A stretch of 38,750 bases of DNA from Deltaproteobacteria bacterium (GTDB lineage: Bacteria > Desulfobacterota > Desulfarculia > Adiutricales > Adiutricaceae). The translations under genes and the position numbers were made by a program. Positions 20,673 through 37,777 of this stretch are shown here, piece by piece; position 1 is the stretch's first letter; each line of letters opens with the position of its first letter. The stretch lies in contig JAISZC010000097.1 of NCBI GenBank assembly GCA_031269485.1, positions 1 to 38,750 of the forward strand, given 5' to 3'. The notes under the pieces were generated by a model that saw nothing but the letters and a program-made list of their open reading frames with translations, ran no database searches and was not told where the DNA came from.

Positions 20673-21317
20673 TCAAGGCCTGGCGGCCAGCAGACGGCGG
20701 GCCGTGTCGGTCGGGTCGGAGGCGGTCGTCAAAGCCGAGATGACCGCCAGCCCGGCGAAGCCCAACCGCCAGATTTCGGCGGCGTTGTCGACCGTCAGCC
20801 CCCCGATGGCCACCGTCGGGGCGCCCAGAGCGACGACGGCCGCGGCTTGGCGGCGATCGGCCGTCGGGGCGTCGGTTTTCGAGCCAGTGGCGAAGATGGC
20901 CCCCACGCCGATGTAGTCGGCGCCGGCGGCCAAGCCGGCTTGGGCTTGGGATTCCAGAGCCGCCGAGAGCCCCAAAATTTTGGACTTGGGCCAATGGGCG
21001 GCCGCGGCCTCCAAGGGCAGATCAGTTTGGCCCAGGTGAAGGCCGTCGGCGTCGGAGGCCAAGGCGATGTCGAGGCGGTCGTTGACGATGAAAAGACGGC
21101 CACGCTCGCGGCAGAAACGGGCCAAAGCAAGGGCCGAACGGTAGAGCTCTCCCCCGGGGAGCTTTTTCTCCCTCAGCTGCAAGGCCGTGACGCCGCCGGC
21201 GAAGGCCAGCTCGGCCAACTGCTCCACGGAGCGCGGCTGGGCCTCGGCCTGGCTGACGACCAGCGTCAGCCGCAGCCTTTCGGCCAGTTCGCTTCTTCGG
21301 CTTTTCGAGCCGCTCAT
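20673..21317 (-). CDS. thiE: Thiamine-phosphate synthase
   Basis: 'GGVTALQLREKKLPGGELY', 'LFIVNDRLDIALASDADGLHLGQTDL', 'ADYIGVGAIFATGSKTDAP', 'PTVAIGGLTVDNA'. Confidence 0.95.
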   Translation of the reverse strand: MSGSKSRRSELAERLRLTLVVSQAEAQPRSVEQLAELAFAGGVTALQLREKKLPGGELYRSALALARFCRERGRLFIVNDRLDIALASDADGLHLGQTDLPLEAAAAHWPKSKILGLSAALESQAQAGLAAGADYIGVGAIFATGSKTDAPTADRRQAAAVVALGAPTVAIGGLTVDNAAEIWRLGFAGLAVISALTTASDPTDTARRLLAARP

Positions 21318-21518
21318 CGGCGCCTCCTGCGCAATTGGCCGCCAAGCCGGCCGCCGGACCCGTCAGCCGGCGGGGCCAGGGCGTCCGGGCCAGCTGCGAC
21401 CGGGCGGCTCTTGCCGGCCAGCTCGCCTCCGACAGTCCCCAAAGAGCCTAAGGCCATCCAGCTCTCATGGTCTTCAGCCGCCGAGGCGGCGGCCGTCGTC
21501 ATTCGAGTCGGCTGGCCC

Positions 21519-22325
21519 TCAGTCGCCCGGGCCGAGCAGATCCCCGCCTGCGATCAGCCCCAGCCAGTCGAACAAAGCCGCCTTGAAGCCGCCCAAGGCG
21601 CCTGGCGTTCCAAGGCCGGCCTCGGCCTTTTCGGCGGCTCGGGCCAAATGGCGCAGCGCTCCGGCCGCGGCCAGCAGCGGCCGGTCAGGGTTGGCCCCGA
21701 CATAGGCCCCGATCAGAGCGCTCAGCAGGCAGCCGGCGCCGGTGAGCTTGGTCAAAAGCGGCGTCCCGCCGGCGACCTTCAAAACGGTCGCGCCGTCGGC
21801 GACCAGATCGGTCGGGCCGGTCACGGCCGCGACGAGGCCACGGCTTTCGGCCAGCGCGGCGATTTTGCGGGCCAAGGTCTCTTCCGTCGCCGCGGCGGTG
21901 GAATCCACGCCCTTTTGCCCGGCCGAGCCTTCGTCGGAGGGGGCGCACAGCGCCAAAATCTCCGAGGCGTTGCCCCGGACGATCTTGGCCGCCGGCAAAA
22001 ATTCCAGCGCCGCCGCCAAGCGTCTGGGCGTGGCCCCGGCGCCCACGGGATCCAGGACGATGGGGACGCCGGCCTCGGCGGCGGCCGCCGCCGCCCGGCG
22101 CATGACGGCCAAGGAGGCCTCGTTGAGGGTGCCGATGTTGATCACCAAGGCCGAGGCCAAGCGGGCCAAGCTTTCGGCGTCCTGCGGGTCTTCGCTCATC
22201 ACCGGCGAGGCCCCCACGGCCAGCAGCGCGTTGGCGCAGTCATTGACCGTGACGGTGTTGGTCAGGCACAGCACCAAGGGCGAAGAGGCCTTAAGACGGT
22301 CCAGAAGACTGGCCCAATCAGCCAT
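21519..22325 (-). CDS. thiM: Hydroxyethylthiazole kinase
   Basis: 'PLVLCLTNTVTVNDCANALLAVGASPVMSEDPQDAESL', 'PIVLDPVGAGATPRR', 'IVRGNASEILAL', 'LTGAGCLLSALIGAYVG'. Confidence 0.95.
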   Translation of the reverse strand: MADWASLLDRLKASSPLVLCLTNTVTVNDCANALLAVGASPVMSEDPQDAESLARLASALVINIGTLNEASLAVMRRAAAAAAEAGVPIVLDPVGAGATPRRLAAALEFLPAAKIVRGNASEILALCAPSDEGSAGQKGVDSTAAATEETLARKIAALAESRGLVAAVTGPTDLVADGATVLKVAGGTPLLTKLTGAGCLLSALIGAYVGANPDRPLLAAAGALRHLARAAEKAEAGLGTPGALGGFKAALFDWLGLIAGGDLLGPGD

Positions 22326-22358
22326 GTTTCACCTCAGTCAAAAAGGGCGGAAAAAAAA

Positions 22359-23177
22359 TTACTTGTAGTCGTAGAGGCGGTAAAAATGGTTGAGCGGACC
22401 GTGGCCGTGGCCCAAGCTCAGGCCGTGCTTGAGGCCTTCCTTGACATAGAGCTTGGCCAGGTGCACCGACTCCTCCATGGTTTCGCCGCGAGCCAGGCAG
22501 GCCGCGACCGCCGCCGACAGCGAGCAGCCCGTGCCGTGGTCGTTTTTGGTCTCCACTCGTGGAGCGGTCAGCCAGATGGGGCCGTCAGCCCCGAAAAAGA
22601 GATCGACGCATTTTTGGCCCGGCGCGTGTCCGCCTTTGACCAGCACATCCTGGGCCCCGAGCTTTTTTAAGGCTTCGGCGGCCTTGAGGCAGTCGTCGAG
22701 ATCGGCGATCTTCACGCCGGTCAAGGCCTCGGCCTCGGGGATGTTGGGCGTGGTGAGCCGGCAAAGAGGCATCAGCCTAAACAAGGCCTCTACGGCGTCG
22801 GGCGGGAGAAACGTGTGCCCGGCGGCGCTGACCATGACCGGATCGAGCACCGCCGGCGGCCGCGGGTCGAGGCGCTCCATAAAGTCGGCCAAGGCTTCGG
22901 CGTTGGCCTTGTTGCCCAAAAGGCCTATCTTGACGGCCTCCACCGGGAAGTCGTCGAAGACGGCTTCCAGCTGGGCGGTCAGCAGGGCCGGCGAGAGGCA
23001 TTCCATGGCGGTCACGGCCACGGTGTTTTGAGCGGTCACGGCGCTCACCGCGCACAGGCCGTAGACGCCCAAGGCGGCGAAGGTCTTGAGATCGGCTTGC
23101 AGGCCGGCCCCGCCGCCGGAGTCTGAGGAGGCGACGGTCAAAGCTCTCGTCAGCGGCAAAACCGCAACGTCGGACAT
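22359..23177 (-). CDS. thiD: Hydroxymethylpyrimidine/phosphomethylpyrimidine kinase
   Basis: 'ALTVASSDSGGGAGLQADLKTFAALGVYGLCAVSAVTAQNT', 'AVKIGLLGNKANAEAL', 'VLDPVMVSAAGH', 'HGTGCSLSAAVAACLARG'. Confidence 0.95.
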   Translation of the reverse strand: MSDVAVLPLTRALTVASSDSGGGAGLQADLKTFAALGVYGLCAVSAVTAQNTVAVTAMECLSPALLTAQLEAVFDDFPVEAVKIGLLGNKANAEALADFMERLDPRPPAVLDPVMVSAAGHTFLPPDAVEALFRLMPLCRLTTPNIPEAEALTGVKIADLDDCLKAAEALKKLGAQDVLVKGGHAPGQKCVDLFFGADGPIWLTAPRVETKNDHGTGCSLSAAVAACLARGETMEESVHLAKLYVKEGLKHGLSLGHGHGPLNHFYRLYDYK

Positions 23178-23589: not shown

Positions 23590-23830
23590 GTGAAGGCTTG
23601 TTGTCAGCGAGGTGCAAGTCCACGCCAGGGGTGTCGCCGCAGCCCCTGCAGCCAGAGATGACCGCGTCGTCGTGAGGTTGGGAGCAACCTGAGGCAAAAG
23701 AGCAGTCCGTAGGTTAACTAACCCGTTTAGACAGAGCGTCGCAGACGAGCCAGCCTTAATTTGGCGAAGCCAGATAGGCGTGCGGCGCCATCTGGGCGGT
23801 TGCTTTGGCTACATGATAGGGTTAACGTCA
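23590..23830 (+). mobile_element. Group II intron-like 5' RNA domain fragment (decayed)
   Basis: 'GTGAAGG...GCGAGGTGCAAGTCCACGC...GAGCAACCTGAGGC...GAGCAGTCCGTAGGTTAACTAACCCG...GACGAGCCAGCCT' resembles domain I of some bacterial group II introns as recalled. Strong hairpin CCAGAT-A-GGCG-TGCGG-CGCC-ATCTGG at 23770-23795. No intact intron-encoded RT ORF follows. Confidence 0.5.
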
Positions 23831-24727
23831 TGTTTCTGAGTTGATGAACAAAAAAATGGCGTCTAAATCGACGCGCATCAAGTTTTTAGGCGTGGAATGC
23901 TCTGAAGACAATGCAAGATAAGTGGAGAAACATATTTAGTCTGATACGATGGCAATAAGAGCTTTTATAGCGCTAAAAGCCATATATGCACCATAATACA
24001 GGGTTAAAAAGCAAAGTCGGTCCATGGAAGGGAATGGAAAGATGGATACGCAGAATATCACCAAAAATTAGAATATTAATCCATATTTAGCTAAATCGAT
24101 ATATTTATTTGTATACGCCTAATAGTCATGCTATTAAGCAGCAACAAGAATAATAGATTCGGCAAGTCATATGCTGCACACTTAAAATGGCTAAATAGCT
24201 TCTTATGAAAGCTTTAGTGCAAATCTATTGAAATTATATGGAACAGCGAAGGACAAAATCGTTTATTTTTCATATATATAGGCTAATTATTCCAATTTAT
24301 GATGATAGCCCTCAATTATAGAAATAAATCTGAAAAAATCGCTAGATATATTCAGAAGTAAGGGAGACAACACTTTTAATACACATATATGAGAAATATC
24401 AATCTATAATAAAAGTCAAATAAGGGTTATATGTCACAAAAAGGCGACCAACGACCGATTACGCCAAAGCTTGAGGGGGCCGACCGCCGCGCGGCGCACG
24501 TCCGCTCGTTCAGACGGCGGCCGAGGCCGAAGCATTTTGACCTTTTCGGCCGAAAAAATCGCCAAAGCTGTCTTGGCTGCGAACCGATTCCAGTGTATTA
24601 TGTTAGCGGCGCTGACTCGAATGTCGGAGGCCGATTCACGTTCAGGCTCGCCGCCGAAGACGACTTTTTGCCGCTGCAGGCCTGAGCTGGGAGCTCCGGG
24701 CCGGGCGCTCGATTGGATAGGCGTGAC

Positions 24728-25627
24728 ATGACGTCTTCACGCAAGAACTTAAGTCCCTCCGCCAACTTGACTTCCAAGAGCCGGCGTCGCGAAGGCGCCG
24801 CTTTCGAGGCGGCGACGGCTACGAAGACCGGCTCGTCCGGCAGGAAAGCTGCGACGCCCGCCGCTGAAGCCCGATTGAGGCTGGTCGTGGAGACGGCGAT
24901 TTTTCAGACGGTTTTGGAGACGTCGGTCGGCGACCGAAAACGCCCCGATGAGCTTAAGCTCAAGATGCTTCTGATCGGACAGGACGGCCCCGCCGAACAC
25001 GTCCGCTGGGCTCTGCCCGGAGACGAGCTGAGATCGTGCGAGGACCTCTCGCAGGCGGCGGACCGGGTGGCCGTCGAGGCTTCCGGGCTGGAATGTCGCC
25101 GCCTCGAGCAGCTGCGGACCTACCTGACCCCGGAAGACGAGCAGGGCCGCCGCCTGGCAAGCTGCGTCCATCTGGTCCTGACTGGTCTCGCGGTCTCGGA
25201 CGGTCCGGTCGGGCATCCTCGGGCCGTCTGGTTTGAGGCCGAAAGAAACATGGAAGGCTTTTGGCGCTTGAGCCGCGACTGCACGAAGGTGGACTTGAAG
25301 CCGCCGACGCTCGGGAAGTGGGCCGGCCGCCTGGAGGAGTCGGCCGCCGCGGCCTTGGAGAAGCTTGAGCTGGAGGCCCTCAGAGGCTGGCCTATCTTCG
25401 AGCTGATGCCCGAGATGTTCACCGTCGGACAACTGCAAAGCATTCAGGAGCTCATTTTAGGCCGGCGGCTTCTGGGCTCGGCCTTTCGGCGGAAGGTCGA
25501 ACGGATGCTGTCGCCCACCGGCGAGTACGTCCGAGACCGGCGTTTTAGGCCTTCGCAGCTCTTCCGCCATGACCCCGATTGGCTGATTTCGCCGCAGGCG
25601 GTGGCGGAGGCCCTGGAACGGCGCTGA
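24728..25627 (+). CDS. NrtR-like Nudix/winged-helix regulator
   Basis: Nudix-like 'LKMLLIGQDGPAEHVRWALPGDELRSCEDLSQAADRVAVEASGL' plus C-terminal 'FTVGQLQSIQELILGRRLLGSAFRRKVERMLSPTGEYVRDRRFRPSQLFRHD', matching the NrtR-type wHTH tail. ATG at 24728 preferred. Confidence 0.8.
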   Translation: MTSSRKNLSPSANLTSKSRRREGAAFEAATATKTGSSGRKAATPAAEARLRLVVETAIFQTVLETSVGDRKRPDELKLKMLLIGQDGPAEHVRWALPGDELRSCEDLSQAADRVAVEASGLECRRLEQLRTYLTPEDEQGRRLASCVHLVLTGLAVSDGPVGHPRAVWFEAERNMEGFWRLSRDCTKVDLKPPTLGKWAGRLEESAAAALEKLELEALRGWPIFELMPEMFTVGQLQSIQELILGRRLLGSAFRRKVERMLSPTGEYVRDRRFRPSQLFRHDPDWLISPQAVAEALERR

Positions 25628-25991: not shown

Positions 25992-26756
25992 ATGAGCAAA
26001 AATTTTCCGGATGCGCCCATAGCCCAGGTGCGCGAGATTTTGTTCGGGGCTCAGCTCAAGGACATGGAAGTGAGATTTCGTCGCCAGGAGGAACGCCTTT
26101 TGCGGGAAATCAGCGAGGTCAAGGAGTCGCTCAGAAGCCGCCTTGACTCTTTGGAAAATTTCATGAAAAGCGAAATTACCTCCTTGATGACCAAGCTCAA
26201 GGAGGAACGCGACGAACGCGACGCCTTGATGAAATCCGAGGCTCGCGAGCGCGGCGAGCAGCAGGCCGCCGACCGGCGCGAAAACGCCGAGAATTTGGCC
26301 AAGGAGCAGCGCGAAAGGAGCGAGGCCGACGCCAAGCTGACCTCCGATCTCAACGCGGCCAACGAAAATTTCGATCGGCGGGCGACCAAGATCAGCGGCG
26401 CGGTGGACGGCCTGGAGCGGACCTTGCGCGAGCTCATCATGACCGAGTCCACCGAGATCAACGACAAGATCGACCTCAAGCACAACGAGACGGCGACCGT
26501 CATTGACAAGACATCCTCCCAGATCCGCTCCGACATGGTCTACCGCACGGCCTTGACGAGCATGTTCACGGAAATGGTGGCTTCGCTGTCCAAGCCCTGG
26601 AACATCGACGTTTCGCAGGTCGAGCCTGAAGACATCTACGAAGCTGAGGCTTCGGAAGGCTCGTCGGGTCAGGAAGGCCAAGGCGGCCAAGAAGGCCAAG
26701 GCGGCCAAGACGGCCAGGGCGATCAAGGCTGGCAGGGGGATCAGGGCCACTACTGA
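25992..26756 (+). CDS. Coiled-coil protein with C-terminal Gly/Gln repeat tail
   Basis: Long heptad-rich charged region 'LKDMEVRFRRQEERLLREISEVKESLRSRLDSLENFMKSEIT...'; tail QEGQGGQEGQGGQDGQGDQGWQGDQGHY. ATG at 25992. Confidence 0.8.
   Translation: MSKNFPDAPIAQVREILFGAQLKDMEVRFRRQEERLLREISEVKESLRSRLDSLENFMKSEITSLMTKLKEERDERDALMKSEARERGEQQAADRRENAENLAKEQRERSEADAKLTSDLNAANENFDRRATKISGAVDGLERTLRELIMTESTEINDKIDLKHNETATVIDKTSSQIRSDMVYRTALTSMFTEMVASLSKPWNIDVSQVEPEDIYEAEASEGSSGQEGQGGQEGQGGQDGQGDQGWQGDQGHY
26670..26741 (+). repeat. Four 18-bp in-frame tandem repeats
   Basis: caggaaggccaaggcggc/caagaaggccaaggcggc/caagacggccagggcgat/caaggctggcagggggat. Confidence 0.9.
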
Positions 26757-26923
26757 GCCGGGCGCGAGGCGCTCGGAGCGCGCCGCCCGTTTCGGGTCCG
26801 AGGCCTCGCCGACCGCCGTCGGCGCCGATCACGCCTCGGGAGGCTCGAGGCGGCGGCCGAGCGTTTTGGCGGGTCTTTTGAGCGCTAAGGCTTGGGCTCC
26901 TTCAGGGTTCGTCCTTCGCCCGC

Positions 26924-26976
26924 CGAGCCTAATGCGGCGGCGCCGTCCGCGACGAGCCGCCGCCGCATTAGGCTCG
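26924..26976. repeat. Perfect 19-bp inverted repeat, 15-nt loop
   Basis: CGAGCCTAATGCGGCGGCG ... CGCCGCCGCATTAGGCTCG (arms 26924-26942 and 26958-26976). Confidence 0.95.
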
Positions 26977-27026
26977 AGCTGGGCGCGTCCAGGTCGCCGA
27001 CTTGTCGACGCTCATCCGTGAGGACT

Positions 27027-29525
27027 ATGGGTTTTTTTTCAAAATTTTGGGGCAAAAAAGTTTCCTCAGCGCCTCCGGAAGGGAGTCCCGCAACTCTCGA
27101 CGGCGTCGGGGCCGACGGCGCTCCTCCGTTCGGCTCGTTGACCCTCGAAGAGCCCCTGGAACGCCTGGGGCCGGAGATTCAAGGCCCGGACGAGGACGCA
27201 TTGCTCTCCCCGGACGAGGCCGGCTTGGCGGCGGGATCCGCCGAAGACTTCAACCCCGTTGACGCGGCGGTTGAAGAGGAGCGGACCTTCGAGCGGGCCG
27301 CCGCTTTGACTTTGGCGTCTTCGGAATCCTCGGCGTCTTCGGAGTCCTTGGAGATCGCGGCCTTTTCGGAGGCCGCAGAGCCGTCGTCGACCGCCGAAGA
27401 CCTCGACGCGCAAGACCAGGGCGATGGATCCGCGCCCCAAGAGTCCCAAGAGTCCCAAGAGTCTCCGGCCGAAAGCGGCCAGACCCCGGAAGGCAAGTCG
27501 GCCGCTTCGTTGAATGACATCGAAGCGCTGCTTTTGAACGATCTCGACAACTTGCTGGGCGACGATTTGCTGGCCTCCGCGGCGCCGCCGCATGATGGCG
27601 CGTCTGCGTCGTCTTCCGAGGCGGATCTGGCGGGCGGCGAAAGCCGTTTCGTCGACGGCCCTTCGGAAGCCGACGATCCGTCCCGCTGGCCCTCCCCTCC
27701 GGAAGATGGCAGCGATCTGGCCCAACTGCGCCGTTTGCTGATGGATCGCGAGCTGACCCAGCTCTCCTACTTCGGCAAGCTCGTCACTGATCCTGGCCGC
27801 CAAGCCCACGCCCTCAGCCAAGTCGTCACCGAAGCGCTGTTGCTGCGCACCCGACGCGACGACAAGCTCAACACCGTCTTGGCCCCGACGGTGGAACGCA
27901 TTGTCACCTCCTCCGTTCGGCGCAACCCCGACGCCTTTGCCAGCCAGATCTTTCCCGTCATCGGCCCGGCCATCAGACGCTCAATTTCCGAGACGTTCGT
28001 CTCGATGCTCCAAAGCTTCAACAGCATGCTCGAAAAGAGCCTGTCGTTCAAAGGTCTGATGTGGCGGCTGGAGGCCTTGAGGGTCCGCAAGCCCTTCAGC
28101 GAGATAGTCTTTCTTCACACGTTGCTGTACCACGTCGAAGAAATTTATCTAATTCACGCCGAGACCGGCCTGGTGCTGCAGCACTTGGTCTCAGAAGGCG
28201 GCGAGAGTCGAGACGCCGATCTGGTGGCCGGCATGTTCACCGCCATCCAGGAGTTCGTCCGTGACAGCTTTTCCGGCGCCGGCGGCGAAAACTTAGAAAA
28301 TTTGCGCTTGGGCGAACGCTCGATATTTTTGCGCCGCACCGAAATGGTCTATTTGGCCTGCGTCGTGCGCGGCAATCCGCCGGCCACCTTGCCTCAGGAC
28401 CTTCAGGAAGCCTTGGAGCTCATGGTGGTCGACTGCGCCGAAGATTTGGACGCCTTCAAGGGCCATGTTGAACCATTCGTCAAGTGTCGCCGATATTTTG
28501 AAGATTTTTTGCAGGTCCGCTATCAGGAAAAGCCCAAAAAACTGCCGTTGGCGGTGCGTCTGCTGCCGGCGGCCGCCGTCTTCGCCGCCTTGTTCTGGCT
28601 GTCCGCCACGACGTACAACCATCGCCGCGATTTGGCCCTGGCCGCGCGTCAGGCCGCCATGGCGGCCGAGCTGGCCCAGGCCCAAGAAAACTCCTTGCTG
28701 CTCGACCGCCGTAAAGTCGATCGGGCGCTCGAGCTGTTGCGCCAAGAACCGGGGCTGGTGCCCGCCAGGGCGGCCCTGAACAGCCGGTCGGTCTGGGAGG
28801 TGATCATCTTGCGGGACAGTCTGGCCAAAGATCCGACCGCAATACTCGTCGACGAAGGCGGCCTCAATCCTGCGCGCCTGACGGTCATCAACCGGCCCTA
28901 CGTCTCATTGGACGAAGACATCGTCGAGAAGCGGGTGGAGACGACCATCCGTCCTCTGAGCACGGTGACGATGGATTTTCAGGGCGAGACGGGGCTGCTG
29001 ATCTTGCGGGGCTCGGCGCCCATGGGCTGGATTCTGTCGGTGCGGGAGCGGGCCATGACCATCCCGGGGGTGCTGGAGCTGGACACGACCTTGCTGCAGG
29101 ATCCCAGGAGCATGGAGATGGAGTCCTTGATTGCGTCCATCAACGGGTTGATCATCCACTTTCCGACCAACAAGGCCGAGCCGGTGCCCGAGGACTTGCC
29201 GGCCCTCAACATGGCGGTGAACAATTTGGTGGCGCTCGAGCGGCTGGCGACGGAAATGCAGATGAGCGTCAACTTGGTCATCTTCGGCTTGGCCGACGCC
29301 ACCGGGCAGGACCGCCGCAACTACGAGCTCTCCGAGCAGCGGACCAAGACCGTGGCCGCCATGCTCTACGCCCGCGGCTGCAGCATTCCCATCGCCAACT
29401 ACGGCCTGGGCAGCCAGTTCTCGGCCCAATCCGAAGAAGGCGGGCCTCTTGAGGATCCGGAAAGCCGTCGCATCGAGCTCAGGGTCCGCCTGTCCCAAGG
29501 CGGCTTCCGGGCGACCGAGGAATGA
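27027..29525 (+). CDS. OmpA-family membrane protein with putative roadblock/longin-like and BON-like regions
   Basis: Acidic N-terminus; 'SFNSMLEKSLSFKGLMWRLEALRVRKPFSEIVFLHTLLYHVEEIYLIHAETGLVLQHLV...DADLVAGMFTAIQEFVRDSF'; TM 'LPLAVRLLPAAAVFAALFWLSATTY'; C-terminal OmpA 'VIFGLADATGQDRRNYELSEQRTKTVAAMLYARG'. ATG at 27027 preferred over 26892. Confidence 0.88.
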   Translation: MGFFSKFWGKKVSSAPPEGSPATLDGVGADGAPPFGSLTLEEPLERLGPEIQGPDEDALLSPDEAGLAAGSAEDFNPVDAAVEEERTFERAAALTLASSESSASSESLEIAAFSEAAEPSSTAEDLDAQDQGDGSAPQESQESQESPAESGQTPEGKSAASLNDIEALLLNDLDNLLGDDLLASAAPPHDGASASSSEADLAGGESRFVDGPSEADDPSRWPSPPEDGSDLAQLRRLLMDRELTQLSYFGKLVTDPGRQAHALSQVVTEALLLRTRRDDKLNTVLAPTVERIVTSSVRRNPDAFASQIFPVIGPAIRRSISETFVSMLQSFNSMLEKSLSFKGLMWRLEALRVRKPFSEIVFLHTLLYHVEEIYLIHAETGLVLQHLVSEGGESRDADLVAGMFTAIQEFVRDSFSGAGGENLENLRLGERSIFLRRTEMVYLACVVRGNPPATLPQDLQEALELMVVDCAEDLDAFKGHVEPFVKCRRYFEDFLQVRYQEKPKKLPLAVRLLPAAAVFAALFWLSATTYNHRRDLALAARQAAMAAELAQAQENSLLLDRRKVDRALELLRQEPGLVPARAALNSRSVWEVIILRDSLAKDPTAILVDEGGLNPARLTVINRPYVSLDEDIVEKRVETTIRPLSTVTMDFQGETGLLILRGSAPMGWILSVRERAMTIPGVLELDTTLLQDPRSMEMESLIASINGLIIHFPTNKAEPVPEDLPALNMAVNNLVALERLATEMQMSVNLVIFGLADATGQDRRNYELSEQRTKTVAAMLYARGCSIPIANYGLGSQFSAQSEEGGPLEDPESRRIELRVRLSQGGFRATEE
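27437..27463 (+). repeat. Three perfect 9-bp tandem repeats (CCAAGAGTC)
   Basis: Read directly; encodes QESQESQES in the acidic N-terminal region of the OmpA-family protein. Confidence 0.95.
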
Positions 29526-29874
29526 GGCCTGGCCGACGGGCGCAAAAAGTCTTATTAACGCTGGACTTTGGCGGATTCGTGGGTTAAAATTGCTCACCAT
29601 TGGCGTCGCCGCCGGCGGACGGAAAATGTCCCGGCCCCGCGCGCCGCCGCGCGGCCCGGCCTCCGCCCCAAGGCGCCTTTCGGCGATGGTTGTCGCCTTG
29701 CTTTTCAGCCCAGCCGGCCTCAACGCCTGAATCGCGCGCGGTTCGCCTTTGGAAGATTGTCGCCCGGGCCATGACGGCAGGGCTCAAGAACCGACATTGT
29801 CACGACGTCGACTCTCCGACGGCGAATCGCCGCCGGACGGACCCCCGCCGCCGTGGGCTTATTGGTAATTTCTT

Positions 29875-30375
29875 ATGATAAATAAAAAAATATGTATGCT
29901 AGGTTCATTTTCAGTCGGGAAAACTGCCTTAGTTAGGCAATACGTTAATTCTATTTTTTCTGATACCTATCTTTCGACTGTCGGGGTTAAAATTAGTAAA
30001 AAAACTATACATATTAAAGATGAAGAGATGAATTTATTGTTATGGGATATGGAAGGGCAAGATAACTATAGCCTGGTCAATATGTCTTATTTGCGTGGGG
30101 CTCATGGTCTTTTGTTTGTAGTTGACGGTACTAGAGGAGAAACACTGGCTGTTTCGCTTAAACTCAGAGTCGAATCCATGAAAATTCTTGGATCGGGGAT
30201 TCCTAGTATTTTTATTATAAATAAAGCAGACCTTGAATCGGAATGGGAAATCACAGAAAAAGTTTTAGCCTCCTTAGAGGCTAAAGGTGTAACCATTTAT
30301 AAGACTAGTGCTAAAACGGGCTTGAATGTTGAAAAAATTTTTGCTGTTCTAGCTGAATCTATGTTGGATAAATAA
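29875..30375 (+). CDS. Rab/Ras-like small GTPase
   Basis: G1 'GSFSVGKTAL', G2 Thr in 'YLSTVGVK', G3 'WDMEGQD', G4 'NKAD', G5 'TSAK'; 166 aa, no lipidation Cys at the C-terminus. Strongly AT-rich. Confidence 0.95.
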   Translation: MINKKICMLGSFSVGKTALVRQYVNSIFSDTYLSTVGVKISKKTIHIKDEEMNLLLWDMEGQDNYSLVNMSYLRGAHGLLFVVDGTRGETLAVSLKLRVESMKILGSGIPSIFIINKADLESEWEITEKVLASLEAKGVTIYKTSAKTGLNVEKIFAVLAESMLDK

Positions 30376-30528
30376 ACTAATTTAACATTTAATAAAAATA
30401 AAAGTATTCAAAACGTTTGGAGCTGTCCAGGCCGTGAAAAAAACTCAAAAAAAGCTCGACGTTCATGGAGTCCACCCAGGACCTCAGGCGCCGCCGCCCG
30501 GCAGTTCGTTTGAGCACGGAAAAGGTCA

Positions 30529-31596
30529 ATGCACGAGAAGAAGACTGCCCTGCTGAGCGACGCGCCCGCTCGCAAGGACGCCGAAGACCGACGCGGCGGC
30601 GACGTCGCTGATGAAGCTCTCGCCCTACGTTTTCTTTGCAGCATGGAGTTCGCGTTGCTGAGGCGCCTCAAGCCCATGTTCTACGAGCTTTACGGCTTGG
30701 CGCCAGATTTTTACTCCAAGTTTTTCCCCCCCGAGCCCGACGGCGCGCCCTGCCGCGCGCCTTGGGAGCACTCCTCGATGCTGGAGTTTTTTCTCTTGGA
30801 CGCGGAGGAGTTTTTCGACCGCTCGCCCAAGCCCGGCGACAAGGTCAACTCGGGGATTTGGCTGGAATCCAACGACAAAACCGGCGATGAGTTGCCGCTG
30901 GTGGCCAAGGCCGTGCAGCTGCACTCCGATCAGCTGATCACCATTCAAGTCATTCAGGAAGAATATGCCGAGCGGGTGCGCATCTTGCGCAAGGCCCGGA
31001 TGGAGCTGGTCGAACGCCGAAAAATATTCAACGCGCTGAACTCCTTCAAGAAGAAGGCCCTGTACGACGCCATGACCAAGCTCTACAACCGGGGCAGCTT
31101 CATGGAGATTCTGCAGGATCAGGTGGAGAAGTACGGCGCCTACACGCCCGCCATGGCCTTGTTCATGATCGACGTCGACAATTTTAAAAAGGTCAACGAC
31201 ACCTTGGGCCATCTGGTGGGCGATTCGGTTTTGGTGCAAGTGTCGGAGATTTTAATAAACTCCTTGCGCAAGAACGATTTTCCGGCCCGCTACGGCGGCG
31301 ACGAGTTCGCCGTGGTGGCCCCCGACACCAACGCGGAGCAGTCCAGCAAGCTGGCCGAAAAACTCAGGCACCGCATTCAGGCCCACAACTTCAACACCGG
31401 CGAAATTCCCGTGACCATCAGCGTGGGCTGCACGACCTACCGCACCGGGGAGAGCATCCAGAACTTCATCCGTCGGGCCGACAAGGCCCTTTACGAAGCC
31501 AAGCAGCTGGGCCGCAACGTGGCCTGCTTCAGGGATCCCTGGCTCATCGACGACGAGGAGCTCTCGCCGGCCGCCCCCGTGGAGCGGGGGGCCTGA
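30529..31596 (+). CDS. Diguanylate cyclase (GGDEF) with uncharacterised N-terminal sensor-like domain
   Basis: 'ALYDAMTKLYNRGSFMEIL', 'FMIDVDNFKKVNDTLGHLVGDSVL', 'RKNDFPARYGGDEFAVVA' (I-site RxxD five residues before GGDEF), 'RRADKALYEAKQLGRN'. Confidence 0.95.
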   Translation: MHEKKTALLSDAPARKDAEDRRGGDVADEALALRFLCSMEFALLRRLKPMFYELYGLAPDFYSKFFPPEPDGAPCRAPWEHSSMLEFFLLDAEEFFDRSPKPGDKVNSGIWLESNDKTGDELPLVAKAVQLHSDQLITIQVIQEEYAERVRILRKARMELVERRKIFNALNSFKKKALYDAMTKLYNRGSFMEILQDQVEKYGAYTPAMALFMIDVDNFKKVNDTLGHLVGDSVLVQVSEILINSLRKNDFPARYGGDEFAVVAPDTNAEQSSKLAEKLRHRIQAHNFNTGEIPVTISVGCTTYRTGESIQNFIRRADKALYEAKQLGRNVACFRDPWLIDDEELSPAAPVERGA

Positions 31597-32876: not shown

Positions 32877-35267
32877 TCATGAGGAGGACGCCGGCCGCTT
32901 GGCGTCTTGGCCCGCCGTTTCGGCCTCCCTTTCGGCCGTCAATGAGACGGGGCCTGACGTGGACGGCCGGTCGGGGCCGGTCGTCTTCTTCTTCGGGGTC
33001 CGCCGGGCCGGACGGCTGTCCGCCGGACTCTTCCGAGCGCCCGCGGACATGGCCTCCGCCGCGGCGCCGCCTTCGAGCCCGCCCGCCAGGCCGTCGGACG
33101 CCTCCGCGCTGGCCAAGCCGTCCTGCTGGCCTTCTCGGGCCAGGGCGGCCGCCTCTCGCGCCACCCGTCGGCTGAAGTCGGGCGGCCAGTCGGCCCGCCG
33201 CGCCCAGAGAGCTTCAGCCAGCTCCAAGGCTTGGGGCAAGAGGTCCAGCTGCCCGGGCAGCTTGGCGAACTTGAAAAGCGGCCAGCCGCTTTGCCGCAGG
33301 CCCAGCTCCTGGCCGGGGCCGCGCAGCTTAAGGTCTAGCTCGGCCAAGGCCAGGCCGTCGTCTTCGTCCTCGAGGGCGGCCAGGCGCGCCAAGGCCGCCG
33401 GGTCGCCGGTCGCCGCCAGCATGAGGAAAACTCCTTGGCCTCCGCCGCGGCCCACCCGCCCTCTGAGCTGGTGGAGCTGCGCCAGACCGAAGTTTTCCGC
33501 TCCTTCGACCAGCATGACGTTGGCGGCCGGAACGTCGACGCCCACCTCGACGATGGTGGTCGACACCAGCGCCCGCAGCTCCCCGGACCGAAAGCGGTCC
33601 ATGACGGCGTCCCGCCGTTCGGCCGAAAGGCGCCCATGGATCAGCCCCAGCCGCGGGAGCAAGGTCTGCAGGGCCCGGGCCGCGCCGAGCGCGTCGGGGC
33701 GGCCGCCCGCCCCGGCGGGCTCGCCTGCGCCGCGGGCCTGGTCCTTGGCCCGAGGGCCGCTCCGAGCGTCGGCGTCTTTGTCCTCGCGGTCCTCGTCCTC
33801 GCCGATGCGGGGGCAGACCACGAAGCCCTGCTCGCCGCCCAGGACCAGCTCGGCGAAGAGCCGGCGGCCTTCCTCGGCCCGGTCGGGGGCGAACAAGACG
33901 GTTTTCGGACGTCGGCGGCCGGGGAGAGCCCCGCGCATGACGGTGAGCTCCAAATCGCCGTAGAGCACCGCCGCCAGGCTGCGGGGTATGGGCGTCGCCG
34001 ACAGGCACAGCATGGCGGCTTGGGGGTTGTTGAGGCGCAAGGCCGCCCGCTGCTTGACGCCGAAGCGCTGCTGCTCGTCGATCACCGCCAGGGCCAGATC
34101 GCCGAAGACGGCCTTGGGCGAGGCCAGAGCCTGGGTGCCCACGGCCAGCAGAGGCTCGCCGGAGGCCAAGGCGGCCAAGGCTTCTCGCCGTTCCCGGGCG
34201 CTTTGGGCGCCGACCAGCAAAACCGTCCGGCGGCCGTTCCCCAGCCGGCTGAAAACCTCAAAATGCTGGCGGGCCAGCAGATCAGCGGGGGTCATCACGG
34301 CCGCCTGCCGGCCCTGGTCGAGGACGGCGCGTATGGCCGCGGCGGCCACCGCCGTCTTGCCGCAGCCGACTTCGCCTTGCAGCAGGCGGCTCATGGGCCG
34401 GGGACCGGCCAGATCGCGAACGATTTCCTCCGTCGCGCGTCTTTGCTCCGGACTGGGCTCGAAAGGCGACTGTCGCCAAAAGCGCTCGGCCGAAGCCAAG
34501 GCGTCGGCCGTCCAGTCGAGCTCGACGTCGCGGGCGGCCGCTTGCTGCTCGGCCCGCAGCCAGCTCAGCGTCAGCCGCCAGCAAAGAAGCTCATGCAGCC
34601 CCAAGGTCCGCCAGCTGCGGCTCTCCTTGGGGCGCGGCAGCGGCCCCTGGGCGTCCGCGGGCGGCCGGTGGACGATCGACAGCAGCTTGACCGGATCCGT
34701 CAGCTGGCGCTCGGCGAGCCACTCCGGCGGGAGCGCCGGCGGGCAATCGTCCAGCAGCCGGGCCGCCTGCTGGGTCGCCACGCGCCGCCAGCCGGCCGAA
34801 AGACGGCCGACGGGGTCGTAGACCGGCGTGACCCCCGGCGGGGCCGCGGAGTCGAGCGAGCGCAGCTCGGGGTGGGTGAAGGTGGGCCGGCCGTCGCGCA
34901 GACGGCACAGACCGAAGGCCTCCACCTGGCGGCCGTCGTAGACCGCGTTTCGGAGCCGCGCCAGGCCGTTGAACCACCACAAGAGGGCCGAGGCGGTGCC
35001 GTCGTCGAGCTCGGCGCGCAGCCAGCGGCCGCCGCGATCCCACGTGACGCGTTGCAGCCGGCCGCAAAAGACCAGCTCTTGGCCGTCGACGGCCTCGGCC
35101 AGCTCGACGAGGCTGCGGCGGTCCTGGTAGCGCCGGGGCGGCGCGGTCAGCAGATCGCCGCAGACCTCGAAGCCGTGGGCCCTCAGTTCTGACGCGCGAG
35201 CCGGACCCAGCCCGGGGAGCTTGCAGAGGGGCCAAGCGAAGGCCGGATGGTCGGGCCAGGGAATCAT
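32877..35267 (-). CDS. recG: ATP-dependent DNA helicase RecG
   Basis: 'MSRLLQGEVGCGKTAVAAAAI', 'LAVIDEQQRFGVKQRAALR', 'MLCLSATPIPRSLAAVLYGDLELTVM', 'LIHGRLSAERRDAVMDRFRSGELRALVSTTIVEVGVDVPAANVMLVEGAENFGLAQLHQLRGRVGRG'. ATG at 35267. Upstream part of the supplied ORF is antisense-phase pbpC. Confidence 0.95.
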   Translation of the reverse strand: MIPWPDHPAFAWPLCKLPGLGPARASELRAHGFEVCGDLLTAPPRRYQDRRSLVELAEAVDGQELVFCGRLQRVTWDRGGRWLRAELDDGTASALLWWFNGLARLRNAVYDGRQVEAFGLCRLRDGRPTFTHPELRSLDSAAPPGVTPVYDPVGRLSAGWRRVATQQAARLLDDCPPALPPEWLAERQLTDPVKLLSIVHRPPADAQGPLPRPKESRSWRTLGLHELLCWRLTLSWLRAEQQAAARDVELDWTADALASAERFWRQSPFEPSPEQRRATEEIVRDLAGPRPMSRLLQGEVGCGKTAVAAAAIRAVLDQGRQAAVMTPADLLARQHFEVFSRLGNGRRTVLLVGAQSARERREALAALASGEPLLAVGTQALASPKAVFGDLALAVIDEQQRFGVKQRAALRLNNPQAAMLCLSATPIPRSLAAVLYGDLELTVMRGALPGRRRPKTVLFAPDRAEEGRRLFAELVLGGEQGFVVCPRIGEDEDREDKDADARSGPRAKDQARGAGEPAGAGGRPDALGAARALQTLLPRLGLIHGRLSAERRDAVMDRFRSGELRALVSTTIVEVGVDVPAANVMLVEGAENFGLAQLHQLRGRVGRGGGQGVFLMLAATGDPAALARLAALEDEDDGLALAELDLKLRGPGQELGLRQSGWPLFKFAKLPGQLDLLPQALELAEALWARRADWPPDFSRRVAREAAALAREGQQDGLASAEASDGLAGGLEGGAAAEAMSAGARKSPADSRPARRTPKKKTTGPDRPSTSGPVSLTAEREAETAGQDAKRPASSS

Positions 35268-37777
35268 CGGGCCTCGACGACGGTCGTCGTCCGGGCGGCT
35301 TCGCGCCCCTGGCTGAGGCCCACGGCGGTCAGCGAGCGGCGGCCGGGCCGGTAGTCCGCCAAAAATTCGGCCCGGCGCAGGCCGCTGACCTGGCGGCGGG
35401 CGACTTCCCGACCGTCGCAGTACAAGACGATTTCGTCGAGTTCGGGGACGCTTTGCACCACGGCCCGAATCTTTTGGTGCTCGGGCGGCAGATCCGGATC
35501 CCAGGCCATGACTTCGCCGTTGACGGGCGTCAGAAAGCCGAAGGTCCGCGGCAGGCCGATGACGTCCACGCGCCGGCCAGGTTGTTGGGCCAGGGGGGCT
35601 AGGCCCTGGCGGCCCAGCTCGTCGTGGCGGCACTGGGCGGCGGGAACGGAGCCTTTGATGAAAAGCTCGAGGCGGAAGTTGGGGCACTGGGGCCCGGCCG
35701 GCAGGCCGGAGACCGGGCAGATCCGCGCGGTCTCCACGTCCTGGGGCCGCTCGGGCGGCCGCGGCGGACGCCGCTCGGCCATCAGATCGGCGACGGCCCG
35801 CCAAAGATGGCCGGCCCCGGTCAGGCCGGAAATCTGCTCCATGGGCTTGGCCTCGAAATTGCCGGCCCAGACCCCGACGACGAAGCCGTCCGTGTAGCCC
35901 AGACACCAGTTGTCGCGGAAGTTTTTGCTGGTGCCGGTCTTGACCGAAGAGCGGTAAGGCGTCGCCAGAGGGCCTTGGGCGCCGAAGCCCGTGGTTCGGG
36001 CCAGATCGTCGGACAAGATGTCGGAGATGATGTAGGCCGCTTCGGGGCTGAGGACTTGACCGCCTTGAAAAGCCTCGCCGTAGCTCGCCCCGCCGGCCTC
36101 CGCCGGACCGCGGGCCGTCCGGAAAGAGCCCGGCTCGGCGGGCCCGTCTGCAAGCTCGGCGGGACGCAAAAAGATCTTGGGCGGCCGCAGGCGTCCGCCG
36201 TCGGCCAAGGCCGCGTAGGCCGTGGTCAGAGACAGCAGGCTCACCTCGCCCCCGCCCAAGGCCAAGCCCAGTCCGTACCAGTCGGCCTCCCGCTCCAGCG
36301 AGCTCAAGCCCAGCCGGCGCAGCTGCTCCAAGACCCGCTCGACGCTCAAGGCCGCCGTCAGGTTGACGGCCGGCAGGTTCAGCGAGCTGGCCAAGGCCGT
36401 GCGGACCGGCACGGGCCCGTGGCTGGCCCCGGAATAATTGCGGGGGCTGAAGACGCCGCCGGGAATGGCGTAGTCGGCGGCCTCGTCGTTGACCAGCGTG
36501 GCCGCGGTGACGAGGCCTTCGTCCAAGGCCAGCCCGTAGATGAAGGGCTTGAGGGCCGAGCCGGGCTGCCGGAGGGTCGTCGCCCCGTCGTTTTGTCCGT
36601 CGTCGACATCGAAGAAGTCGGCCGAGCCGACCCAGGCCAGCACCTCCCGTTCCGGCAGGCTGAGGACCACCACGGCCGTCTGGCTGAGGCCGTGTCCGCG
36701 GAAGCGCCGGACGGTGGAGGCGGCCAGGGCCTCGACGGCCTGCTGGAGCTCGAGGTCCAGCGTGGCGGCGATCCTCTTGGGCGGCCGCGGTCCCAGCCGG
36801 CTTTTGAGATGGTTGACGAAGTGCGGGGCCAGCCAAGCCTTTTGCGGGGCCTGCAGGACCAGGGGCTCGGCCAGGGCCCGCTCGGCGGTCGCGGCCGTCA
36901 GGCGGCCCTGCGCGAGCATGCGCCGCAGGACGGACTGGCGGCGGGCCAGTGCCCGGTCCGGACGGCGGTAGGGGTTGTAGGTCGACGGGGCGGCCGGCAG
37001 GCCCGCCAGCAGGGCCGCCTCGGCCGGCGAGAGGCTTTTGGCGCTCTTGCCCAAATAGGCCTCGGCGGCGGCCTGAAAGCCCACGTTGAGATCGCCCGTC
37101 GGGGCCGAGTTGAGGTAGGCGGCCAAGATGTCGTCTTTGCTGTGATGGCGCTCCAAAAGGAGGGCCAGCCACATCTCGCGGAGCTTGCGTCGAAAGGTCC
37201 GCGGGCCGGGGGTCAGCCCCAGCGTCAGGCGGGCCGTCTGCATGGTGATGGTCGAGCCGCCGCTTATGATGCGGCGGCCGCGAACGTTCATGATCAAGGC
37301 TCTGACGATGGCCGCGGGATCGACGCCGGGATGGAGGCGGAAACGCTTGTCCTCGGCGGCCAGCACCGCCTCGACGAGGTAGGGGCTGAACTCCTCGAGG
37401 CGCAAGTATTCCTTGCGGCTCATGGGCGGCGGGAGGATCTCCTTGAGCAGCCGGCCTTCCCGGTCGGCGACCAAGACGTTCCAATCCCAGATCGCCTCGC
37501 GCTCGAAGGGATCCGGAAAAAGGCCCAGAGCCAGCCAGCCCAGGGCCGCAAAAATCGTCAGGGCCGCCAGAGCCAAGGCCGCGCGGCGCCGCAGGCGCTT
37601 CGTCGGGCGCGGCTGGGGACAAGGCGCGGCGTCTTCGAGTCGGGCGGCCGGGCCGCGGCGGGACGGTCCGCCGGAAAGGCCGCAAGCTCCGGCAGACCGC
37701 CTAGACTCCGGCGGCGGCTCGGAAGGCCGGCTCGCCGGGTCCGTCCGTCCCTGGCGATTCGGCGGGGGCAAGCTCAC
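35264..37777 (-). CDS. pbpC: Penicillin-binding protein 1C (bifunctional)
   Basis: GT51 'EAVLAAEDKRFRLHPGVDPAAIVRAL', 'ISGGSTITMQTARL'; transpeptidase 'QPGSALKPFIYGLAL', 'SLNLPAVNL', 'VKTGTSKNFRDNWCLGYT'; PBP1C-type C-terminal region. GTG at 37777 overlaps the fabD stop. Confidence 0.93.
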   Translation of the reverse strand: MSLPPPNRQGRTDPASRPSEPPPESRRSAGACGLSGGPSRRGPAARLEDAAPCPQPRPTKRLRRRAALALAALTIFAALGWLALGLFPDPFEREAIWDWNVLVADREGRLLKEILPPPMSRKEYLRLEEFSPYLVEAVLAAEDKRFRLHPGVDPAAIVRALIMNVRGRRIISGGSTITMQTARLTLGLTPGPRTFRRKLREMWLALLLERHHSKDDILAAYLNSAPTGDLNVGFQAAAEAYLGKSAKSLSPAEAALLAGLPAAPSTYNPYRRPDRALARRQSVLRRMLAQGRLTAATAERALAEPLVLQAPQKAWLAPHFVNHLKSRLGPRPPKRIAATLDLELQQAVEALAASTVRRFRGHGLSQTAVVVLSLPEREVLAWVGSADFFDVDDGQNDGATTLRQPGSALKPFIYGLALDEGLVTAATLVNDEAADYAIPGGVFSPRNYSGASHGPVPVRTALASSLNLPAVNLTAALSVERVLEQLRRLGLSSLEREADWYGLGLALGGGEVSLLSLTTAYAALADGGRLRPPKIFLRPAELADGPAEPGSFRTARGPAEAGGASYGEAFQGGQVLSPEAAYIISDILSDDLARTTGFGAQGPLATPYRSSVKTGTSKNFRDNWCLGYTDGFVVGVWAGNFEAKPMEQISGLTGAGHLWRAVADLMAERRPPRPPERPQDVETARICPVSGLPAGPQCPNFRLELFIKGSVPAAQCRHDELGRQGLAPLAQQPGRRVDVIGLPRTFGFLTPVNGEVMAWDPDLPPEHQKIRAVVQSVPELDEIVLYCDGREVARRQVSGLRRAEFLADYRPGRRSLTAVGLSQGREAARTTTVVEAR

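What the first reader, a model, noticed from the sequence alone, without database searches (positions are those of the whole stretch)
25992..31596. Candidate membrane-anchored small-GTPase/c-di-GMP signalling cassette
Four consecutive plus-strand genes: coiled-coil protein, inner-membrane OmpA-family protein with a long cytoplasmic N-terminal region, Rab/Ras-like GTPase, diguanylate cyclase. Seen directly: order, orientation and motifs. From memory, unverified: cyanobacterial genomes contain similar OmpA-family proteins ('GLKWRLEALR...HTLLYRVEQVFLIH') near Rab-like GTPases, and histidine kinases with an N-terminus similar to this GGDEF protein. Inference: a conserved module in which the GTPase and a GAP/GEF-like membrane scaffold link the cell envelope to a variable output, here c-di-GMP.
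Basis: partly seen in the sequence, partly recalled or inferred. Interest (0 to 1): 0.88.

Follow-up and report, generated by a model that had tools for sequence, protein, structure and literature searches.

The report
Bacterial Rab-like GTPase signalling operon
This is a four-gene bacterial signalling operon, of a type first catalogued in 2014, in which a Rab-like molecular switch probably works with an envelope-anchored protein whose inner part is predicted to fold like the activators of Rab switches in our own cells, and passes a signal to an enzyme that makes the messenger c-di-GMP.

Summary
Four plus-strand genes encode a coiled-coil protein, a membrane protein ending in an OmpA-like domain, a Ras/Rab-type GTPase and a GGDEF diguanylate cyclase, in the order given. 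The set is not chance: of 51 genome loci found with the GTPase alone and with enough flanking DNA, 50 carry the membrane protein, 50 the coiled-coil protein and 43 the same kind of output protein.

The system is already known: Wuichet & Sogaard-Andersen (2014, PMC4316618) described this neighbourhood as 'Group 1 Rup'. No experimental study was found.

New here:
(1) The membrane protein's cytosolic 'unknown' domain is predicted to have a longin/Roadblock-superfamily fold. Its best solved match is the Rab-activating complex Mon1-Ccz1 (Foldseek E = 3.5e-5). This rests on structure; no sequence search supports it significantly.
(2) The output protein's N-terminal domain is PAS-like, and the outputs are more varied than reported.
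(3) The window belongs to a derived clade. Its GTPase has the canonical G3 glutamine, and its cyclase lacks the glutamine that is 96% conserved elsewhere. The tree gives no independent support for a compensatory swap.

GEF, GAP or effector activity is inferred, not shown.

The parts
25992..26756 (+). Coiled-coil protein (254 aa), first gene of the module; N-terminal two thirds conserved, Gly/Gln-rich tail
   Evidence: ORF; 48-66% identical orthologues directly upstream of the membrane protein in relatives; present in 50 of 51 loci with enough flank
27027..29525 (+). Single-pass membrane protein (832 aa): N-terminal 'MGFFSKF' motif, acidic linker, cytosolic domain, transmembrane segment, periplasmic OmpA-like domain
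   Evidence: present in 50 of 51 loci; ATG at 27027 chosen over the TTG at 26892 because orthologues start MGFFS
27714..28094 (+). Helical part of the cytosolic domain
   Evidence: AlphaFold2 model residues 1-127, pLDDT mostly 77-88 and 52-64 around residues 81-110
28095..28523 (+). Longin/Roadblock-superfamily domain (b-b-a-b-b-b-a-a)
   Evidence: AlphaFold2 model; Foldseek best hits Mon1-Ccz1 5ldd E = 3.5e-5 and 4.0e-5, then AP sigma subunits, Fuzzy-Inturned, TRAPP, MglB; sub-threshold Pfam Intu_longin_1 and Fuz_longin_1
28548..28604 (+). Transmembrane segment
   Evidence: Kyte-Doolittle maximum 1.89 at aa 508-526
29238..29384 (+). Periplasmic OmpA-like (peptidoglycan-binding type) domain, partial match
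   Evidence: PF00691 E = 5.3e-5 in the genome search and 9e-4 in hmmscan, below the family cut-off
29875..30375 (+). Rab/Ras-like small GTPase, Group 1 Rup type (166 aa)
   Evidence: Pfam Ras 7.5e-30; best solved relative Rab23 E = 2.2e-23; separated from MglA by a 100-support branch
30058..30060 (+). Codon for Gln62, the G3-motif glutamine equivalent to Ras Gln61; Glu in most homologues
30529..31596 (+). Diguanylate cyclase: PAS-like N-terminal domain, signalling helix, GGDEF domain
   Evidence: model and fold search
30601..30951 (+). PAS-like output N-terminal domain shared by the module's different outputs
   Evidence: AlphaFold2 pLDDT 90.6; PAS/LOV hits
30988..30990 (+). Codon for Arg154 in the post-PAS helix, at the position that is Gln in 96% of acidic/His-type homologues
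31057..31518 (+). GGDEF domain with intact active site and I-site
   Evidence: PF00990

Best explanation
It is a Group 1 Rup signalling operon, in a derived variant with a GGDEF output. Shown by sequence, comparison and structure prediction: the conserved four-gene module, the GTPase with complete G motifs, the intact cyclase, the PAS-like domain that links varied outputs, and the predicted longin/Roadblock fold of the membrane protein's cytosolic part. Inferred mechanism: the OmpA-like domain attaches the membrane protein to the cell wall; its cytosolic longin-like domain, probably as a dimer, binds the GTPase and sets its nucleotide state (more likely as an exchange factor or docking platform than as a GAP); and the GTP-bound GTPase then engages the PAS-helix region of the cyclase and switches c-di-GMP synthesis in response to the state of the envelope. 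The coiled-coil protein is a constant but unexplained scaffold. In this clade GTP hydrolysis probably uses the GTPase's own Gln62, not a glutamine supplied by the output protein.
For: Order and co-occurrence. Published neighbourhood and its proposed signalling role: PMC4316618. Predicted longin fold with Rab-GEF longins as the best hits; longin dimers bind small GTPases, mainly as GEFs (PMC10933270; PMC5216073). GTPase on the Rup/Rab side and not MglA. No Roadblock (MglB) match in the genome, so no MglB-type regulator was found. PAS fold before each catalytic output. The only strongly conserved output glutamine lies in the post-PAS helix and is Arg in the window's family, whose GTPase has Gln in G3. 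The genome has other GGDEF proteins and one PilZ protein.
Against: No biochemical or complex-structure evidence. The longin assignment has no significant sequence support: Pfam E values are at best 0.05, PDB profile searches were negative, and HHalign against an MglB alignment gave 0.3%. The cis/trans glutamine shift rests on essentially one clade: the independent-pairs test gives no support, R/R and S/R pairs have neither glutamine, and L126 has both. The OmpA match is weak in the window, so peptidoglycan binding is an assumption. No EAL protein was found and HD-GYP enzymes were not searched for, so how the messenger is removed is unknown.
Confidence: 0.6

Rival explanations
1. The membrane protein's longin-like domain is the GAP, working like MglB, and the output protein is a pure effector.
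For: Roadblock proteins, including MglB, appear among the fold hits (3t1r E = 3.7e-3, 3t12); MglB is a Roadblock GAP for MglA (PMC4316618; PMC3521125); one sub-threshold Pfam Robl_LC7 match.
Against: Best fold hits are longins of Rab GEFs, about two orders of magnitude better in E value than MglB; no profile similarity to MglB; the GTPase is on the Rup/Rab side, not MglA.
Confidence: 0.2
2. The output protein itself is the GAP: its conserved glutamine enters the GTPase active site in trans, as Wuichet & Sogaard-Andersen speculated, so the cyclase is both effector and terminator; the window's clade abandoned this when the GTPase acquired Gln62.
For: A single glutamine column is 96% conserved in acidic/His-type systems and 17% in the rest; in the window's family the GTPase is Gln and the output is Arg or Ser.
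Against: Association is carried by one clade and is not supported by independent pairs; R/R, S/R and K/R pairs lack glutamine on both sides, and L126 has it on both. The glutamine lies in the signalling helix of the PAS domain, so dimer packing is an equally good reason for its conservation.
Confidence: 0.15
3. The genes are neighbours by shared expression only; the GTPase does not act on the cyclase.
For: No interaction was tested; evidence of interaction is purely comparative.
Against: Same gene set and order across phyla although the output enzyme changes; a common PAS-like N-terminus is kept while the catalytic part varies.
Confidence: 0.05

Closest known systems
Group 1 Rup systems (Wuichet & Sogaard-Andersen 2014, PMC4316618)
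   Same: Same four-gene neighbourhood: coiled-coil protein, unknown domain plus membrane helix plus OmpA protein, Rab-like GTPase, signal output with a shared N-terminal region; no MglB partner.
   Different: The published group lacks the G3 glutamine and has an invariant glutamine in the output N-terminus; the window has Gln in G3 and Arg in the output. That paper leaves the unknown domain unassigned; here it is predicted to be longin-like.
MglA/MglB polarity module and actinobacterial conservons
   Same: Small GTPase with a Roadblock/longin-superfamily partner, coupled to signalling proteins.
   Different: Different GTPase family (100-support split); partner not detectably related in sequence to MglB; here the partner is membrane- and envelope-anchored.
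Mon1-Ccz1, Fuzzy-Inturned and TRAPP longin Rab GEFs (eukaryotes)
   Same: Predicted longin fold next to a Rab-like GTPase; Foldseek top hits.
   Different: No significant sequence similarity; exchange activity unproven; bacterial, membrane-spanning, one longin-like domain per chain.
YfiBNR (Pseudomonas): OmpA-like YfiB controlling the cyclase YfiN
   Same: OmpA-like protein linked to a diguanylate cyclase (from general knowledge, not tested here).
   Different: No GTPase; the cyclase itself spans the membrane; no homology claimed beyond the OmpA and GGDEF domains.

Membership tests
Group 1 Rup system | Small single-domain GTPase (150-240 aa) with Ras-type G1-G5 motifs and the conserved Asp of G3 | tested here: met
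   166 aa, motifs intact
Group 1 Rup system | Groups with Rup/Rab-type GTPases and apart from MglA | tested here: met
   100-support split from 20 MglA; clusters with cyanobacterial, Nitrospira and Bacteroidales Rup sequences
Group 1 Rup system | Neighbourhood of coiled-coil protein, unknown-domain/TM/OmpA protein and signal-output protein | tested here: met
Group 1 Rup system | No MglB partner | tested here: met
   No PF03259 match in the window genome, which is 76% complete
Group 1 Rup system | G3 motif lacks the catalytic glutamine (reported property, not the criterion on which the group was defined) | tested here: not met
   Window and its whole family have DMEGQ or DLEGQ: hence 'derived variant'
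Group 1 Rup system | Invariant glutamine in the output N-terminal region (reported property) | tested here: not met
   Arg154 at that column; the column is 96% Gln in acidic/His-type systems. That this is the paper's glutamine is inferred, because its logo figure is not held.
Longin domain | Longin/Roadblock-superfamily fold | tested here: met
   Predicted model only; essentially all of the 50 best PDB hits are longin or Roadblock proteins
Longin domain | Longin rather than Roadblock arrangement (extra C-terminal helix in place of the N-terminal one, PMC10933270) | tested here: inconclusive
   Helices both before strand 1 and two after strand 5; the latter have the highest confidence; coordinates not available for inspection
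Longin domain | Significant sequence similarity to known longins | tested here: not met
   Best Pfam E 0.05-0.19; PDB profile search negative
Rab GEF | Accelerates nucleotide exchange on its GTPase | not testable with these tools
   Needs purified proteins
Active diguanylate cyclase | GG[DE]EF active site and domain match | tested here: met
   RYGGDEF, I-site RKND, PF00990 3e-44

The most novel reading that the evidence does not exclude
Bacteria contain a complete, envelope-anchored counterpart of the eukaryotic longin Rab-GEF/Rab pair. The unknown domain of Group 1 Rup OmpA proteins would be a true longin exchange factor for a Rab-like GTPase whose closest solved relative is Rab23 (whose own GEF, Fuzzy-Inturned, is among the fold hits), driving interchangeable PAS-coupled outputs. 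In the clade of the window, catalysis moved from a glutamine in the output protein to one in the GTPase.
Probability: 0.2. Interest if true: 0.85.

Novelty: new variant of a known kind. Interest (0 to 1): 0.6.

Why it matters
Group 1 Rup GTPases are the bacterial proteins reported to be closest to eukaryotic Rab/Ras/Rho/Ran (PMC4316618), and no study of their function was found. Assigning the partner's unknown domain to the longin/Roadblock superfamily gives a concrete, testable regulator for them. It also bears on where the Rab-longin partnership came from, since eukaryotic longins have been proposed to derive from MglB-type Roadblock domains (PMC3521125). The window's family offers a natural contrast for testing the 2014 idea that another protein supplies the catalytic glutamine in trans.

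Tried and rejected
A strict cis/trans glutamine swap: rejected as unproven, because independent pairs show nothing and there are R/R, S/R and Q/Q exceptions. Sequence-level proof of longin or MglB homology: negative; the MglB alignment contained one wrong sequence (L210). Dgc2 of Leptolyngbya as a studied relative: no link to a GTPase or OmpA protein in the paper. HGT of the AT-rich GTPase gene: rejected, since its protein sits with the same sister genomes as its neighbours do. Cross-phylum transfer among gut bacteria: not claimed, because some MAG names look unreliable (L099 is named Betaproteobacteria, but an identical place, L181, lies in a genome of the GTDB family of a Desulfovibrionaceae genome). 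In-frame stops in some GTPase hits are only their normal terminators. One search was a malformed alignment.

Full report
Observation. Searches confirm the four plus-strand genes at 25992-31596, in the order and with the motifs described. The window is contig C83 of a 2.59-Mb, 76% complete assembly. This is inferred from record titles.

Is it a module? Searching relatives with the membrane protein found it in nearly all genomes of the family. In about 28 loci the same four genes lie in the same order. A scan of 84,980 species genomes with the GTPase alone brought in 80 loci from many phyla. Of the 51 with enough flank, 50 have the membrane protein, 50 the coiled-coil protein and 43 the same output N-terminal domain. 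In part of the rest, another PAS-type protein follows the GTPase, for example a histidine kinase or a guanylate cyclase. Conservation is highest in the GTPase (up to 92% identity within the family) and the cyclase.

Prior knowledge. Wuichet & Sogaard-Andersen (PMC4316618) described exactly this neighbourhood for 'Group 1 Rup' GTPases and proposed a membrane signalling system. They noted that these GTPases lack the G3 glutamine and that the outputs share an N-terminal region with an invariant glutamine, and speculated that the catalytic glutamine is supplied in trans. No experimental follow-up was found in the open-access library, which lacks subscription papers and most preprints. So the system as a whole is known.

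What was added. (a) AlphaFold2 of the cytosolic domain, using 50 diverse homologues, gave pLDDT 81.7, with residues 200-265 mostly at 92-98. Foldseek against the PDB gave Mon1-Ccz1 longin chains at E = 3.5e-5 and 4.0e-5, then AP sigma and mu subunits, Fuzzy-Inturned, GATOR1, TRAPP, MglB and Roadblock proteins. Essentially every one of the 50 best hits is in the longin/Roadblock superfamily. Among the weak Pfam matches of the region, far from significant, are the longin domains of INTU/CCZ1/HPS4 (the best for the window itself) and of FUZ/MON1/HPS1. Profile comparison with MglB and the PDB sequence search were negative, so the assignment is structural only. (b) The output N-terminal domain is PAS-like (pLDDT 90.6; PAS and LOV hits). 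(c) Outputs behind the module include GGDEF, histidine kinases, histidine kinase with receiver, sigma-54 activator, HD domain, SpoIIE phosphatase and a class III cyclase, wider than reported. (d) In acidic/His-type systems one output column is 96% glutamine and is the only conserved glutamine; in the remaining systems, almost all in one supported GTPase clade, it is 17%. The G3 residue is Glu in most lineages, Lys/Arg/Ser in gut Desulfovibrionaceae-like lineages and Gln in the window's family, whose output residue is Arg or, once, Ser. The tree shows the association is carried by essentially one clade, and the independent-pairs test finds no support. It is a good hypothesis, not a result.

Mechanism. 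[quoted passage not shown] Mon1-Ccz1 holds the Rab switch I region open (PMC5216073). The window genome has no detected Roadblock protein. The simplest reading is an envelope-anchored longin-like protein that sets the state of the GTPase, which then acts on the PAS-helix of the cyclase. The steps after the fold prediction are inference. The genome encodes other GGDEF proteins and a PilZ protein but no detected EAL protein.

Verdict. A real, conserved, already described type of signalling operon, here in a derived variant, with a new structural clue to how its GTPase is regulated. Interest 0.6.

Noticed in passing
window 29875-30375: The GTPase gene is sharply AT-rich (GC 0.35, third-position GC 0.29) between neighbours at third-position GC 0.78-0.83; orthologues in relatives are 0.50-0.96. 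The protein is placed vertically, so the cause is unexplained.
   Followed up: partly
window 23800-24450: AT-rich stretch (28-40% GC) upstream of a Nudix/NrtR-like regulator gene (24713-25627); no gene called and no Rfam match.
   Followed up: partly
L060-L065: One genus of the family carries a second OmpA-like reading frame, about a third identical to the periplasmic part, between the membrane protein and the GTPase.
   Followed up: no
L066 and L079: In genome G012 the module is split: coiled-coil and membrane protein on one contig, GTPase and cyclase on another.
   Followed up: partly
L085-L087, L130-L133, L141: Where the usual output domain is absent, another PAS-type protein follows the GTPase (guanylate cyclase, histidine kinase, apparently sigma-54 AAA+): a second output adaptor.
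   Followed up: partly
L135: Locus with two output-type proteins around one GTPase.
   Followed up: no
window 20673-23177 and 32877-37685, minus strand: Thiamine genes (ThiE-like, ThiD-like) and a RecG-like helicase flank the module; they recur near it in relatives of the family but not across phyla.
   Followed up: partly
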